36,364 nt of DNA, taken from positions 1 to 36,364 of IMG/VR virus record IMGVR_UViG_3300012210_000015; one strand, written 5' to 3'. The notes beneath the pieces were generated by a model that worked only from the letters and a program-made list of their open reading frames with translations, was not told the origin of the DNA and did not search any database. Positions 4,310 through 9,397 of this stretch are shown piece after piece (the stretch's first letter is position 1; every line of letters begins with the position of its first letter). The stretch is from a virus. A program made the translations under genes and the position numbers.

Positions 4310-4546
4310 ATGGGTGCACGGCCAGCGCCACCCCCGTTCACTGCCTACGAAGGCCAGCCCGAGGCCACCATCGAGCGCCATGGCCGCTGCTCGTACTGGG
4401 TGGACATCCAGTGGGGCATGATGGGCCTGAGCACGGCTCCATGGTGGCGATGGAGCCGCAAGAGCGCCGAGCGTAAGGCACTCCGGGAGATACGCCGGTG
4501 GAAGGCGAGGGCCGCACGCGAGTCATGGCCGGTCAGCGCACCATGA
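4310..4546 (+). CDS. Hypothetical 78-residue basic protein
   Basis: Starts two bases after the previous stop. The second half is rich in Trp and Arg (APWWRWSRKSAERKAL), giving a basic amphipathic helix that could bind nucleic acid or membrane surface. No recognised motif. It overlaps the HNH gene that follows (ATGA). Confidence 0.6.
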   Translation: MGARPAPPPFTAYEGQPEATIERHGRCSYWVDIQWGMMGLSTAPWWRWSRKSAERKALREIRRWKARAARESWPVSAP

Positions 4547-4887
4547 CTACGGCCGCCCGCACCCGCCGGGACTACCAGCGGTGGGCGCGCAGAGGGTCAA
4601 CTGCCGCTAGGGGCTACGATCACCGGCACCAGGCCGAACGGGAACGGCGCCTCGCCCTCTACCGGCCTGGTGACCCGTGCGCCCACTGCGGCCAGCCCAT
4701 GCTCTGGTGGCCGCTGCCCGTGGCGCGCCGGTTCATCGACCTGCCGCACGCACCGGGCAAGACTGGCTACCTGCCCGGTCTCGCCTGCCGCCGGTGCAAC
4801 CGCAGCGACGGCCAGCGCATGACCACGGCCATCCTGCGCGCCAGGCGCGGCCAGGGCCGGGCGTGGCAGGCGGCGCGGCGGTGGTGA
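4543..4887 (+). CDS. HNH endonuclease
   Basis: A 114-residue protein (ATG at 4543 in an ATGA overlap; a GTG at 4498 is an alternative). It has a basic N-terminus with RGYDHRHQAERERRL, then CAHC near residue 48, DLPHAP with the central His, and a LACRRCNRSDG end. This is the usual HNH layout with two zinc-holding CxxC pairs. HNH nucleases beside terminase genes act in DNA packaging in several phages (HK97 gp74 is the known case) and probably do so here. Position just upstream of the terminase genes supports that role. Confidence 0.85.
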   Translation: MTTAARTRRDYQRWARRGSTAARGYDHRHQAERERRLALYRPGDPCAHCGQPMLWWPLPVARRFIDLPHAPGKTGYLPGLACRRCNRSDGQRMTTAILRARRGQGRAWQAARRW

Positions 4888-5313: not shown

Positions 5314-5646
5314 GTGGCGGACAGCGAGGCGGTGCGGTCGCGCCGCAAGCGCGCCCACGCAGCTGGCGATCACCGGCTCTGCCGCCGCTGCGCGGCCGTC
5401 CGGGGTCCTTCGTCAGGGCCTCCGATGATGGCGATGCCACCGGCCGCGCCGCCGCCCGCCCGGGTGGATGACCCGGTGGCCGAGCTGCGCCAGCTGGCCG
5501 CCCAGCTCGCCGGGGCGTACCGGGCCGACCCGGGGAACGCCCTGCTGGCCCGCGAGCTGCGGATGACGCTGCAGGCGCTGATGCCGCAGAAGGCCGGGAA
5601 CTCGGACGATGACCTTGATGACCTCTTCGGAGCGCTGCAGGCCTAG
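5314..5646 (+). CDS. Terminase small subunit-like protein
   Basis: A 110-residue protein with a GTG start behind a strong TAAGGAGG site. The N-terminus is basic (RSRRKRAHAAGDHRLC) and resembles the DNA-binding start of actinophage small terminases. A Pro/Ala linker follows, then a helical C-terminus (ELRQLAAQLAGAY, LARELRMTLQAL) of oligomerisation type. The stop overlaps the large terminase start region. Small subunits recognise the packaging site and feed DNA to the large subunit. The call rests on pattern and position; sequence alone is not decisive. Confidence 0.6.
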   Translation: MADSEAVRSRRKRAHAAGDHRLCRRCAAVRGPSSGPPMMAMPPAAPPPARVDDPVAELRQLAAQLAGAYRADPGNALLARELRMTLQALMPQKAGNSDDDLDDLFGALQA

Positions 5647-6538
5647 GTGGGCCACCCCGGCCACGCCGGGCAGGAAGAACCTGGCCGCGGGGATCGGCAA
5701 GACGGCGGTGCTGCTCGGCTTCGGGACGCGGCTGGGCCCGGGGCTGATGCCGTGGCAGCACGAGGTGAACGCGGTCGCCACCGAGCTCGACCCGCTCGGC
5801 CGGCTCGCGTTCCGGCAGGTCGTGCTCGAGGTCATGAGGCAACAGGGAAAATCTGTAGACCTGCTGTCCATGATGATCGCGCGGGGCCTGCGCCGCCCGG
5901 GTACGCAGATTGCCTACACGGCGCAGACCCGGCTTGATGCGCGTCACCGGCTGCTGGACGTGTGGTGGCCGCTGATCGAGCGGTCCAAGCTGCGGCGGTT
6001 CATCGACGTGCGCCGCGGGTCGGGCTCTGAGGCGCTGGTCTTTAAGAACGGGTCGATGCTGGGGCTGGTCAGCAGCACGCAGACGTCCGGGCATGGCGAC
6101 GTGGTGGACCTGGGCGTGATCGATGAGGCGTGGGCGCAGGAGGATGACCGCCTGGAGCAGGCGATGCGCCCGGCGATGATGACGCGGGACGCGCAGCTGT
6201 GGGTGGTGTCCGCGGCGGGGACGGAGAGGTCGGCGTATTTCCGCGGGAAGGTGGAGGACGGCCGCGGCCGCGCGGAGATGGGCCTGACGGACCGGGGCGC
6301 GTACTTCGGGTACGGCGCCCCGGATGACGCGGACCCGGGGGATCCGGCGGTGTGGCGGGCGTGCATGCCGGCGCTGGGGATCACGGTGTCGGAGGAGGTG
6401 GTGGCGGCGGACTACGATCTCATGGAGCTCAGTGAGTTCCGCCGATTACGTGCGTACCTTTGCCAATGGCCCGAGGTGGCAAAACCCGGTTGGGAAGTAA
6501 TCTCCCAGCAGACATGGGAGACACTAGGTTATGGCTGA
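5609..6538 (+). CDS. terL: Terminase large subunit, ATPase part (split gene)
   Basis: About 309 residues covering only the packaging ATPase domain. RQQGKS at residues 77-82 is the Walker A loop, VIDEAWAQ with D172-E173 is Walker B, and the segment around SSTQTSGHGDVVDLG matches phage terminases. The frame stops after a GWEVISQQTWETLGYG end, which corresponds to the linker where the nuclease domain normally begins. The nuclease domain appears as a separate frame at 6682. Start codons at 5609 or 5618 both overlap the small terminase gene. The last 100 bases are less GC-rich than their surroundings and include a hairpin at 6501-6521. Confidence 0.9.
   Translation: MTLMTSSERCRPRWATPATPGRKNLAAGIGKTAVLLGFGTRLGPGLMPWQHEVNAVATELDPLGRLAFRQVVLEVMRQQGKSVDLLSMMIARGLRRPGTQIAYTAQTRLDARHRLLDVWWPLIERSKLRRFIDVRRGSGSEALVFKNGSMLGLVSSTQTSGHGDVVDLGVIDEAWAQEDDRLEQAMRPAMMTRDAQLWVVSAAGTERSAYFRGKVEDGRGRAEMGLTDRGAYFGYGAPDDADPGDPAVWRACMPALGITVSEEVVAADYDLMELSEFRRLRAYLCQWPEVAKPGWEVISQQTWETLGYG
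6501..6521 (+). other. Hairpin at the terminase break
   Basis: TCTCCCA and TGGGAGA form a perfect 7-bp stem around a 7-base loop, about ten bases before the ATG of the inserted small gene. It could affect translation of the downstream frames or mark an insertion boundary. No U-tract follows, so it is not a typical terminator. Confidence 0.4.
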
Positions 6539-6689
6539 CAGGGATACTTGCCCGTCCTGCGGGGAGACGCTGCCCGATCCGGCTCTGATCGCTGACGCTG
6601 CGGGGCGGCGCATGATCCTCCCGGCGCACGAGCAGATTCACATGTGCCCGTTTTCCCTGCTAGTCCCGGCGGACGGCGGCCGTGGCTGA
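6531..6689 (+). CDS. Small zinc-finger-like protein inserted between terminase halves
   Basis: A 52-residue protein starting ATGGCTGAC inside the end of the ATPase gene (8-bp overlap) and ending 8 bp inside the nuclease gene. CPSC at residues 7-10 plus H-x3-H-x-C near residues 33-39 could hold zinc. Both its start and the nuclease start read TGGCTGA, a short direct repeat flanking the small gene. The tight overlaps suggest one coupled translation unit of three proteins. It resembles the many zinc mini-genes in the first 5 kb, so a similar cassette may have inserted here. Function unknown; it may bridge the two terminase parts. Confidence 0.65.
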   Translation: MADRDTCPSCGETLPDPALIADAAGRRMILPAHEQIHMCPFSLLVPADGGRG

Positions 6690-7182
6690 GTGCGCGTTCG
6701 GGATGGAGATCTCCGAGGACCGGTCGAGGTGCGCGGTCGCGAAGGCGTGGCGTGAGGCCCCGGGCCGGATGGCGGTGAAGGTGGTGTGGCACGGCCCCCC
6801 GCCGGTCGCGCCGACGGTCATGGACGCGCTGTACACCGCGGATGACCCGGTGGAGGTGGCGCTGGACCCGCGCTCGCAGTCATCGACGCTGTGCCATCAG
6901 CTGGCCGAGCTGGGGATCGTGGCGAAGCGGCTCGGCCCGGAGGACGTGGCGGTCGCCCACGGCGAGTTCATGGACCTGGCCGCGACGGGGCACCTGCGGC
7001 ATTTCAGCCAGCCGGGGCTGACGGCGGCGGTGCGGGGGGCGCAGCAGCGGCCTCTGGCGGGCGCGCGGGCGCTGGAGCGGCGGGTGGTGACGGATCAGTC
7101 GCCGCTGACGGCGGCCGAGTTCGCGGTGTGGGGTTTCCTCAGGTGGGAAGAGGTCAGCAGCCCCGGCGTGTACGTGGTCTAG
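6682..7182 (+). CDS. terL: Terminase large subunit, nuclease part (split gene)
   Basis: A 166-residue protein with GTG start whose sequence fits the RNase H-fold nuclease domain of large terminases. GMEISEDRS matches the usual G-D-x-S-x-D opening strand, with Glu in place of the first Asp. VALDPRSQSSTL supplies the second acidic strand, and RHFSQPGLTAAVRGAQQRPL and DQSPLTAAEFAVWG match the end of the domain. The ATPase lies in a separate frame upstream. The two proteins may assemble as a split motor, or the gene may be broken. The Asp-to-Glu change keeps a carboxylate, so activity is plausible. Confidence 0.85.
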   Translation: MAECAFGMEISEDRSRCAVAKAWREAPGRMAVKVVWHGPPPVAPTVMDALYTADDPVEVALDPRSQSSTLCHQLAELGIVAKRLGPEDVAVAHGEFMDLAATGHLRHFSQPGLTAAVRGAQQRPLAGARALERRVVTDQSPLTAAEFAVWGFLRWEEVSSPGVYVV

Positions 7183-7436
7183 CGCTCCAGGTGCGGCGGC
7201 CCGCCGCCCTCGCGGATCTCGATCGGGATGCCGAGCAGGAACTCCGGCGCGGAGATCGCCGGGCCGGGCCGATGGAGGCCGCCTCTGCTGTCGTCCAGCT
7301 TGCGGACCTCGTTGAGCCATTCCAGGCTCATCACCCAGCGTGAGGTGAGTTCGTCAGTTGGGGTGTTCGCGTAGGTGCGGAAAATGTGCTCCCGGAGATC
7401 ACCAGTGAGGGTGTCGGAGAGCGTGGTGTCGCTCAT
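7179..7436 (-). CDS. Reverse-strand hypothetical protein
   Basis: An 85-residue protein on the opposite strand to the packaging genes, converging on the nuclease stop so that both stop codons share CTAG. It is helical (LREHIFRTYANT, SLEWLNEVRKLDD) and ends GIPIEIREGGGPPHLE, nearly the same tail as the forward protein at 2658-3023. That shared tail argues that it is a real gene. It is the first of several isolated reverse genes in the late region. Function unknown. Confidence 0.65.
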   Translation of the reverse strand: MSDTTLSDTLTGDLREHIFRTYANTPTDELTSRWVMSLEWLNEVRKLDDSRGGLHRPGPAISAPEFLLGIPIEIREGGGPPHLER

Positions 7437-7458
7437 GTCCGTAGCTTAGGAGGTCCCG

Positions 7459-7680
7459 GTGCGCCTGTCCGTGGTCCTGCTGCTGTGCTCGCTGGCCGGG
7501 GTGCTGGGCGGCGCGGCGCTGATCGGCATGGCCGCGCTGGGCGGGGCGGTCATCTTCGACTCGCTGTGCCTGGGCGTGTACGCGCTGGGCCGCGACGACG
7601 GCACGGGCGAGCGGCGGCCGTCGGCGCATGAGGTGCCGACGCTGGCGACCGTGCTGGAAAGGGCCCGGCGGGCGTCGTGA
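7459..7680 (+). CDS. Small two-span membrane protein
   Basis: GTG start behind a good GGAGGT site. The 73-residue product has two adjacent hydrophobic segments (VVLLLCSLAGVLGGAAL and MAALGGAVIFDSLCLGVYAL) and a short charged tail. The stop overlaps the next GTG (GTGA). Role unknown; its place before the portal gene does not suggest lysis. Confidence 0.65.
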   Translation: MRLSVVLLLCSLAGVLGGAALIGMAALGGAVIFDSLCLGVYALGRDDGTGERRPSAHEVPTLATVLERARRAS

Positions 7681-7979
7681 GCATCCCGATGCGCACCACC
7701 GCGCTCGCTCCCGATGGCGGCCTGGTCGAGGTCAGGTTCTACGACGCTGATGGCATCCGGAAATTCACCTGGCAGTGCCCGCTTTGCAGGGGCGTCAACG
7801 AGGGACAGCTCGGCCCGCATCCCATCGGCGGGTTCTACCGGGACACGGGCGTCCATCCCGTCTGGGTGCTGACCGGGACTGAGGAGAAGCCGACGCTCAC
7901 CCCGTCGCTCGGGTGCTGGTCGTGCTACCCGGCGGGACATTACTGGCTGCGTGACGGGGTTCTGGCGAGGGCGGCATGA
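7677..7979 (+). CDS. DUF6527-like protein
   Basis: A 100-residue protein with CPLC near residue 33, HPVWVLTGTEEKPTLTPSLG in the middle and a HYWLRDG end. These elements match the pattern I know from DUF6527 proteins: a Cys pair, a W-x-G segment followed by P-T-L-x-P-S, and a closing H-W/F-x-x-D-G. That family occurs widely in phages with no known function, and metal binding is likely. It is coupled to the portal gene (ATGA overlap). Confidence 0.65.
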   Translation: MSIPMRTTALAPDGGLVEVRFYDADGIRKFTWQCPLCRGVNEGQLGPHPIGGFYRDTGVHPVWVLTGTEEKPTLTPSLGCWSCYPAGHYWLRDGVLARAA

Positions 7980-9397
7980 GGCTGTGGGACCGCCTCATCA
8001 AGCGCGACGGCTACTGGGAGGGGGTGGCCAGCGGGGCGTCGGTCCTGACCACCTCCTACGGCTCGCCGGACCGTGAGCCGGTGATGCCGCAGCTGGCCGG
8101 GTTCGCGCAGCAGGCCAGCGGGTCCTCCTCGCCGGTGTTCTCCGCGCACCTGGTCCGGATGGCGCTCTTCAGCGAAGCGCGGTTCCAGTTCCAGGCGCTC
8201 GACGACCGGCACCTGTTCGGTACCACCGCCCTGGCCAAGCTGGAGGAGCCGTTCGGGCCGGACACGACGACGGGTAACCTGCTGGCCCGGATGGAGCAGG
8301 ACGCGTTCCTGGCCGGCCAGGCGTACATCTGGGATGCGCCGGGTGAGGACCGGCTGGTGCGGCTGCGGCCGGACTGGGTGACGATCGTGTCGGAGAAGGT
8401 GCAGGTCGGCGGGGGCGGCTGGTACCGCCGCCCGGTCGGCTACTGGTGGGAACCCCCCAAGCCGGTCCTGGGTCAGGGTGACGGCTTCCTCGTCCCGGCC
8501 GGGGAGTGCGTCCACTGGGCGCCCGTCTGCGACCCGCAGGCGGACTTCCGCGGTATGTCGCCGCTGACCCCGGTCATCCGGGACATCCAGGGCGACGACG
8601 GGATGGCCCGGTACAAGATCCGGTACCTGCAGCACGACGCGACCCCGAACATCATCATCAAGTACGCGCAGCGGCTGGCCGAGGGCACGATCGACAGGAT
8701 CCGGGAGCGGGTGGACGCCCGGTACGCGGGCCCGGACAACGCGGGCAAGACCCTGATCCTGGACCAGGGCGCCGACCTCACTTTGGCCGGGAACAGCCTG
8801 TCGCAGATGGATTTCGGGAATGTGCAGGCGGTGGGCCAGGAGCGGATCCTGGCGGCGTGCTCGGTGCCGGGGGTGCTGGTGGGCCTGGAGCCGCTGCGCG
8901 GCGCCGGCCGGGGCTACCAAGAATCGATGCAAAAACTAGCCAACATTTGGGCGAGGCCGCAGTGGCGGTCGGCGTGCGGGGCGCTGGGCAAGATCGTGGA
9001 CGTTCCCGTCGGGAACCGCCTCTGGTTCGACGTTTCCGATATCGCGGCGCTGCAGGACGGGGAGATGGAGCGCGGGCAGGCCGCGCTGGTGCGGGCGCAG
9101 GCGCTACTCGCTTTGGTGCAGGCCGGGTACACGCACGAGTCGGCGATCGCGGCGGTGGACGCGATGGACCTGTCGCAGCTGAAGGCGGGCGGCGCGGGCA
9201 CCCCGGCGAGCTCGCAGCCGGTGCAGCACCTGCTGCCGCAGCAGCAGCCGGGCGCGACCGCGGACCCGCTCCCGGCGACGATGCCCAGGCTGCCGGTCGG
9301 GTCCACGTCGCCCGGCGACGGCGGGAACGGGTCCCGGCCGACGCCGCGGCCGTCGAGCGCGCGCCGGGCGCTGGAAGGAGCCAACGGCCATGGCTAA
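7976..9397 (+). CDS. Portal protein (HK97 type)
   Basis: A 473-residue protein of the usual length for HK97-type portals. Features include an SPVFSAHLVRMALFSEARFQFQ opening in split form, a beta-rich wing with LRPDWVTIV, an HWAPVCDPQADFRGMSPLTP segment, then DGMARYKIRYLQHDATPNIIIKY and the clip/stem region with SVPGVLVGLEPLRGAGRGYQE. The C-terminal 80 residues are Pro/Gln-rich and probably disordered. The portal forms the dodecameric ring at one capsid vertex through which the terminase packs DNA. ATG overlaps the preceding stop. Confidence 0.93.
   Translation: MRLWDRLIKRDGYWEGVASGASVLTTSYGSPDREPVMPQLAGFAQQASGSSSPVFSAHLVRMALFSEARFQFQALDDRHLFGTTALAKLEEPFGPDTTTGNLLARMEQDAFLAGQAYIWDAPGEDRLVRLRPDWVTIVSEKVQVGGGGWYRRPVGYWWEPPKPVLGQGDGFLVPAGECVHWAPVCDPQADFRGMSPLTPVIRDIQGDDGMARYKIRYLQHDATPNIIIKYAQRLAEGTIDRIRERVDARYAGPDNAGKTLILDQGADLTLAGNSLSQMDFGNVQAVGQERILAACSVPGVLVGLEPLRGAGRGYQESMQKLANIWARPQWRSACGALGKIVDVPVGNRLWFDVSDIAALQDGEMERGQAALVRAQALLALVQAGYTHESAIAAVDAMDLSQLKAGGAGTPASSQPVQHLLPQQQPGATADPLPATMPRLPVGSTSPGDGGNGSRPTPRPSSARRALEGANGHG

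What the first reader, a model, noticed from the sequence alone, without database searches (positions are those of the whole stretch)
5609..7182. Large terminase split into ATPase and nuclease genes by a zinc-finger mini-gene
The ATPase frame ends where the linker to the nuclease domain should be, and the nuclease appears as a separate GTG-started frame 140 bp later. Between them is a complete 52-residue Cys/His protein overlapping both by exactly eight bases. Both downstream starts read TGGCTGA, a direct repeat flanking the insert. The overlaps look like an evolved three-gene unit, not random decay. It could be a two-part packaging motor with a zinc protein as bridge, or the scar of an inserted cassette or a lost intein/intron. 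The nuclease also has Glu where the first Asp is usual.
Basis: partly seen in the sequence, partly recalled or inferred. Interest (0 to 1): 0.8.

Follow-up and report, generated by a model that had tools for sequence, protein, structure and literature searches.

The report
Naturally split phage DNA-packaging motor gene
In a large group of soil viruses of bacteria, the DNA-packaging motor protein that is elsewhere one chain with an engine part and a cutting part is encoded as two separate genes, and small unrelated genes, here a putative zinc protein, have repeatedly slipped into the seam between them; this matters because cutting the same protein in two in phage T4 stops its motor.

Summary
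The two large ORFs are the two domains of one HK97-type large terminase: their models match HK97 TerL residues 1-273 (Z 25.7) and 294-483 (Z 13.4). The split is not local. About 115 distinct related soil-virus junctions are split, mostly by a 4- or 8-base stop/start overlap; a second identical contig and low dN/dS rule out error or decay. Stand-alone nucleases form one clade (SH-aLRT 99) against 108 fused ones, yet pair with two very different ATPase families, so the split probably arose once and the nuclease changed partners. The zinc ORF is cargo: relatives show the empty site, other seams hold methyltransferase, endonuclease VII, DUF2283 or HTH genes, and the zinc gene's only homologue sits before a portal gene. 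Glu for Asp is usual in this clade; about 40% of split nucleases are Ala-Asn-Asp, probably without catalysis. Best reading: a working two-polypeptide terminase assembled in trans, with portable genes in the seam. Assembly and function are inferred, not shown.

The parts
5609..6538 (+). Terminase large subunit, ATPase half (309 aa from the first ATG; Walker A RQQGKS, Walker B VIDEA, both invariant in the alignment)
   Evidence: Pfam TerL_ATPase 2.9e-5; phrog_9 5.1e-34; model matches HK97 TerL 1-273 at Z 25.7; invariant motif residues
6531..6538 (+). 8-base overlap ATGGCTGA: ATPase stop and start of the middle ORF
   Evidence: sequence; the same 8 bases join ATPase and nuclease directly in L068, L083, L087, L074
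6531..6689 (+). 52-aa putative zinc-binding ORF (CxxC, HxxxH), cargo gene in the seam
   Evidence: sequence; homologue 75-80% identical in L017 before the portal gene; dN/dS about 0.2-0.3; zinc binding itself not tested
6682..6689 (+). 8-base overlap GTGGCTGA: stop of the middle ORF and start of the nuclease
   Evidence: sequence
6682..7182 (+). Terminase large subunit, nuclease half (166 aa, RNase H fold, E9-D62-D138)
   Evidence: phrog_9 1.9e-6 at profile 481-668; model matches HK97 TerL 294-483 Z 13.4, G20c Z 13.3, T4 gp17 Z 12.6
4498..4887 (+). HNH endonuclease gene upstream of the terminase (possible partner in DNA cleavage)
   Evidence: phrog_1808 HNH endonuclease 5.6e-8; homologues upstream of TerL in most relatives with enough upstream sequence
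7976..9397 (+). Portal protein gene (context)
   Evidence: Pfam Phage_portal 8.8e-25

Best explanation
This is a naturally two-polypeptide large terminase. An ancestral one-chain HK97-type TerL was broken once, in the linker between its ATPase and nuclease domains, by a stop codon overlapping a new start codon (4 or 8 bases). Both halves are made from one mRNA, the second probably by coupled re-initiation, and are expected to meet again non-covalently at the portal: the ATPase drives DNA in, while the separate nuclease (with the neighbouring HNH enzyme) cuts DNA and/or contributes its DNA-handling surface. Once the halves were separate genes, the seam became an ordinary gene boundary: the nuclease moved between different ATPases, and small genes entered the seam. 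The 52-aa zinc ORF is one such passenger, neither the cause of the split nor a conserved part of the motor. Shown: the split, one clade of stand-alone nucleases, partner changes, recurrent cargo, the folds. Inferred: coupled translation, assembly in trans, division of labour with HNH.
For: Both halves tile one TerL. About 115 distinct split junctions, 86 of them with only a 4- or 8-base overlap and 27 with inserts. Stand-alone nucleases are one clade, SH-aLRT 99, with two ATPase families as partners. Outgroup phages and actinomycete prophages are fused. Inserts are mostly whole unrelated genes tiled with 4/8-base overlaps. Zinc-ORF homologue at another junction. dN/dS well below 1 against close relatives. 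Identical second contig. No other terminase found in 13 split records, most of them 36-72 kb.
Against: No expression, binding or packaging data. In T4, splitting gp17 at the linker kept ATPase and nuclease activity but abolished translocation (PMC3012670), so assembly in trans cannot be taken for granted. Many relatives have a nuclease with two of three metal ligands replaced, so the nuclease half may not be a working nuclease in all of them. All split members are metagenomic.
Confidence: 0.72

Rival explanations
1. The ATPase half alone is the motor; the separate nuclease is a free enzyme that only cuts DNA, or an accessory on the way to loss, and the halves need not assemble.
For: The T4 split experiment shows that both activities survive separately. 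About 40% of the stand-alone nucleases in the tree are Ala-Asn-Asp. The nuclease has changed ATPase partners, which is easier without a tight interface.
Against: The nuclease gene is next to the ATPase in every split locus classified, even with cargo between, and is under purifying selection also in the Ala-Asn-Asp group. The C-terminal domain is needed for translocation in T4.
Confidence: 0.2
2. The zinc protein is a functional bridge or third subunit that joins the two halves.
For: It lies between them with exact 8-base overlaps and is conserved at low dN/dS between the window and L017.
Against: 86 relatives are split with nothing between; others carry unrelated genes there; its only homologue outside this phage sits before the portal gene in a phage whose terminase is split without it.
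Confidence: 0.04
3. Scar of an intron or intein: the halves are, or recently were, joined by RNA or protein splicing.
For: terL genes are interrupted by group I introns in other phages, e.g. Jug phages (PMC12363816).
Against: No Rfam match in the window or in 16 relatives. Relatives without insert are still split and out of frame. Inserts are unrelated genes, in L055 on the opposite strand.
Confidence: 0.01
4. A programmed ribosomal frameshift at the overlap makes a fused protein in relatives without insert.
For: The halves overlap by 4 or 8 bases and are in different frames.
Against: The relative frame is not conserved: -1 for the 4-base type, +1 for the 8-base type. In 27 junctions whole genes or non-coding DNA intervene.
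Confidence: 0.02
5. Sequencing error, or a decaying pseudogene.
For: A single metagenomic contig by itself could carry a frameshift.
Against: A second contig is identical over 6122-8691; about 115 distinct split junctions; dN/dS well below 1; no other terminase in long split records.
Confidence: 0.01

Closest known systems
HK97 TerL (PDB 6z6d; cos packaging with the HNH protein gp74)
   Same: Both halves match it best by fold, end to end; an HNH gene is nearby; HK97-type portal, protease and capsid genes follow.
   Different: HK97 TerL is one chain with Asp-Asp-Asp; here there are two chains with Glu-Asp-Asp and a cargo gene between.
T4 gp17 split in the laboratory into ATPase and nuclease domains (PMC3012670)
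   Same: Break at the interdomain linker; each half folds as its own domain.
   Different: The T4 halves keep ATPase and nuclease activity but lose translocation; here the split is natural, old and the only terminase found.
Fused TerL of Arthrobacter, Gordonia and Rhodococcus phages and of actinomycete prophages
   Same: Same ATPase and nuclease families.
   Different: One CDS with a longer linker and mostly Asp-Asp-Asp.
terL genes interrupted by group I introns, e.g. Jug phages (PMC12363816)
   Same: terL is in pieces with other genes between them.
   Different: There, RNA splicing restores one reading frame; here the pieces overlap and there is no intron signal.
phi29-type packaging ATPase with a vestigial nuclease domain (PMC9410871)
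   Same: A nuclease fold kept without catalysis, as predicted for the Ala-Asn-Asp relatives.
   Different: In phi29 the vestigial domain is fused to the ATPase; here it is a separate chain.

Membership tests
HK97-type terminase large subunit | packaging ATPase domain with Walker A and B motifs | tested here: met
   Pfam and PHROG matches, HK97 TerL 1-273 at Z 25.7, invariant motif residues
HK97-type terminase large subunit | RNase H-fold nuclease domain | tested here: met
   model of the nuclease ORF, HK97 TerL 294-483 at Z 13.4, G20c 13.3
HK97-type terminase large subunit | three acidic metal ligands, usually Asp-Asp-Asp | tested here: inconclusive
   window has E9, D62, D138; whether Glu supports catalysis is not known; relatives Glu-Asp-Asp or Ala-Asn-Asp
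HK97-type terminase large subunit | ATPase and nuclease in one polypeptide | tested here: not met
   two ORFs, out of frame, with a gene between; split in about 115 junctions
HK97-type terminase large subunit | next to portal and HNH genes in the packaging module | tested here: met
   portal 7976-9397, HNH 4498-4887
HK97-type terminase large subunit | ATP-driven DNA packaging and cleavage | not testable with these tools
   needs biochemistry
group I/II intron in terL | conserved intron RNA structure | tested here: not met
   no Rfam match at gathering score in the window or 16 relatives
intein in TerL | in-frame insert continuous with both exteins | tested here: not met
   the insert ORF is in another frame than the ATPase, each frame ends in a stop
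zinc-finger protein (52-aa ORF) | match to a zinc-binding family | tested here: inconclusive
   CxxC and HxxxH conserved in two sequences; Pfam only weak sub-threshold hits

The most novel reading that the evidence does not exclude
The detached nuclease has become an exchangeable subunit of the packaging motor that can be combined with different ATPases; in the Ala-Asn-Asp relatives it no longer cuts DNA but still grips or positions it, while the nearby HNH endonuclease makes the cuts. That would be a two-chain viral motor in which power and DNA handling are separate, swappable proteins.
Probability: 0.33. Interest if true: 0.82.

Novelty: new variant of a known kind. Interest (0 to 1): 0.7.

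Why it matters
The one-chain ATPase-nuclease architecture is described as universal in tailed phages (PMC7824862), and models of DNA translocation use the covalent hinge to pass force from the ATPase to the C-terminal domain; splitting T4 gp17 at the hinge kills translocation (PMC3012670). A large natural clade that runs split makes 'is the covalent link needed?' directly testable. It also gives a natural series of terminase nucleases from Asp-Asp-Asp (fused) through Glu-Asp-Asp to Ala-Asn-Asp, shows the two halves exchanging partners, and marks a seam inside a core gene that collects small genes, which matters for annotation and for the use of TerL as a phage marker.

Tried and rejected
Zinc-protein homologues in phage records: no significant tblastn match; in IMG/VR only the same phage and L017. 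Target-site duplication as a sign of a transposon: the 7-base repeat is explained by the overlap itself, since relatives without insert carry the same 8 bases once, and other inserts have unlike ends. Programmed frameshift: the relative frame differs between groups and cargo intervenes. Introns: no Rfam match. The seam as a special hot spot: the nuclease-to-portal interval is at least as variable, 216-1763 bases, so the seam behaves like an ordinary gene boundary. Co-evolution of the ATPase tail with the nuclease: seen in one subset but not robust, so not claimed. Nuclease profile against PDB sequences: no real match; only the fold comparison works. HNH presence does not clearly differ between nuclease types. 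Literature searches found no description of a naturally two-chain TerL, but the library holds open-licence papers only.

Full report
WHAT IS THERE. The three frames are exactly as reported: ATPase 5609-6538, zinc ORF 6531-6689, nuclease 6682-7182, joined by the 8-base overlaps ATGGCTGA and GTGGCTGA. The ATPase ORF hits Pfam TerL_ATPase and phrog_9; the nuclease ORF has no Pfam match but continues phrog_9 where the ATPase leaves it (profile 100-469, then 481-668). AlphaFold2 models made with relatives give an ATPase (pLDDT 80.8) that matches HK97 TerL residues 1-273 at Z 25.7, and a nuclease (pLDDT 84) that matches HK97 TerL residues 294-483 at Z 13.4, G20c at 13.3 and T4 gp17 at 12.6. Together the two ORFs cover a whole large terminase, and the break lies in its linker.

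IT IS NOT LOCAL. Scans of IMG/VR brought relatives, mostly from metagenomic contigs. Classified by profile, 110 of 113 distinct junctions in the first set are split. Over everything fetched, 78 split junctions carry the window's kind of ATPase and 37 a second, very different ATPase family: 76 have a 4-base overlap (nearly all GTGA), 10 the 8-base overlap, 2 a longer overlap and 27 an insert. Cultured actinobacterial phages of the same families are fused (sampled further hits lie in terminase-sized single CDSs), and so are nearly all matches in actinomycete genomes; the exception is one Actinomycetota MAG contig, L106, the only hint at a host. The counts lean towards close relatives, because a scan keeps the best 80 loci, and near-duplicates remain among them.

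ONE CLADE, SEVERAL PARTNERS. In a tree of 188 nuclease sequences the 80 stand-alone ones are one side of a branch (SH-aLRT 99) and the 108 fused ones the other. Within the stand-alone clade the ATPase partner changes between two families 8-9 times by parsimony, at least 3 times by well-supported branches. The simplest reading is that the split was made once and then travelled. The three fused members found inside the split part of the ATPase tree (L057, L059, L067) carry a fused-type nuclease, which suggests replacement. The window itself is mosaic: against L061 its nuclease is 90% but its ATPase 68% identical, against L004 46% and 82%.

THE INSERT IS CARGO. Relatives L068, L083, L087 and L074 show the empty site, where ATPase and nuclease share one ATGGCTGA. 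Other relatives hold other genes at the same seam, and most single inserts are tiled by one ORF that overlaps both neighbours by 4 or 8 bases: N6/N4 methyltransferase (L002, L191), endonuclease VII (L050, L192), DUF2283 (L046 group), and unknown proteins of 29-150 aa; L055 has an HTH gene on the opposite strand. L008 and L032 have a 107-base insert with an inverted repeat and no obvious gene. L064 and L071 are ambiguous, since their nucleases are divergent. On the ATPase tree inserts need at least 11 changes. The zinc gene has one homologue outside this phage, in L017, between a 73-aa gene and the portal gene, again with 4-base overlaps on both sides; in the window that slot holds a DUF6527 gene. 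A conserved bridging role is therefore very unlikely. The seam is not exceptionally attractive: the nuclease-portal interval is just as variable.

IT IS FUNCTIONAL SEQUENCE. L081, a separate contig, is identical to the window over 6122-8691. dN/dS against close relatives is 0.14-0.42 for the nuclease, 0.15-0.33 for the ATPase and about 0.2-0.3 for the zinc ORF. In 13 split records, twelve of 36-72 kb and one of 8 kb, no second terminase was found. Introns are not supported; a frameshift fusion is not supported, because the relative frame differs between groups and some seams hold whole genes.

THE ACTIVE SITE. E9, D62 and D138 line up with the known metal ligands; the offsets place E9 on G20c D294, T4 D401 and HK97 D302 (residue roles: PMC5389553, PMC3012670, PMC9410871). 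Fused relatives are mostly Asp-Asp-Asp, with some Glu-Asp-Asp. Of the 80 stand-alone rows in the tree 41 are Glu-Asp-Asp and 32 are Ala-Asn-Asp; within the stand-alone clade each of the two positions needs only 2 changes. Since D294N and D347N gave the lowest nuclease activity in G20c, the Ala-Asn-Asp group is probably catalytically dead, though still under purifying selection. An HNH endonuclease gene lies upstream of the terminase in most relatives of either kind and in the window (4498-4887); HK97's HNH protein promotes cos cleavage. That HNH has taken over the cutting is a hypothesis.

HOW IT PROBABLY WORKS. One message is read; each stop/start overlap lets the ribosome re-initiate, so that the halves are made in related amounts (inferred). 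The ATPase ring sits at the portal and the nuclease docks on it without a covalent hinge (inferred). This is remarkable because the same cut in T4 gp17 keeps both activities but abolishes translocation. So either this clade has a stable non-covalent interface, or its ATPase alone moves DNA and the nuclease acts separately.

LIMITS. There are no biochemical or expression data, no cultured member and no prediction of the complex, and literature access is partial. I recall, unverified, that annotation vocabularies list ATPase and nuclease domains of terminases as separate terms, so isolated cases may have been annotated before; none turned up here.

Noticed in passing
window 7179-7436 (- strand): 85-aa ORF on the opposite strand that resembles a piece of an HK97-fold major capsid protein (Pfam PF05065 E 0.0066, below cut-off; blastp to the window's own capsid protein E 3e-5 over 39 aa); relatives lie at other places in L023, L054, L012.
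   Followed up: partly
L008:3827-3933 and L032:1226-1332: A 107-base insert without an obvious gene between the two terminase halves, with an inverted repeat (GACCTGCGGTGA...TCACCGCAGGTC in L008) and a near-repeat GCATCGACYAAGT at its ends; it may be a small mobile element.
   Followed up: no
L057, L059, L067: Fused terminases inside the split part of the ATPase tree that carry a nuclease of the fused type: possible re-fusion by domain replacement.
   Followed up: partly
L171:1243-1909: Insert of about 667 bases, the size of the methyltransferase insert of L191, but without an intact long ORF; possibly a broken methyltransferase gene.
   Followed up: no
window 7677-7979: DUF6527 gene with a CxxC motif and 4-base overlaps with both neighbours, in the slot that holds the zinc-ORF homologue in L017.
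   Followed up: partly
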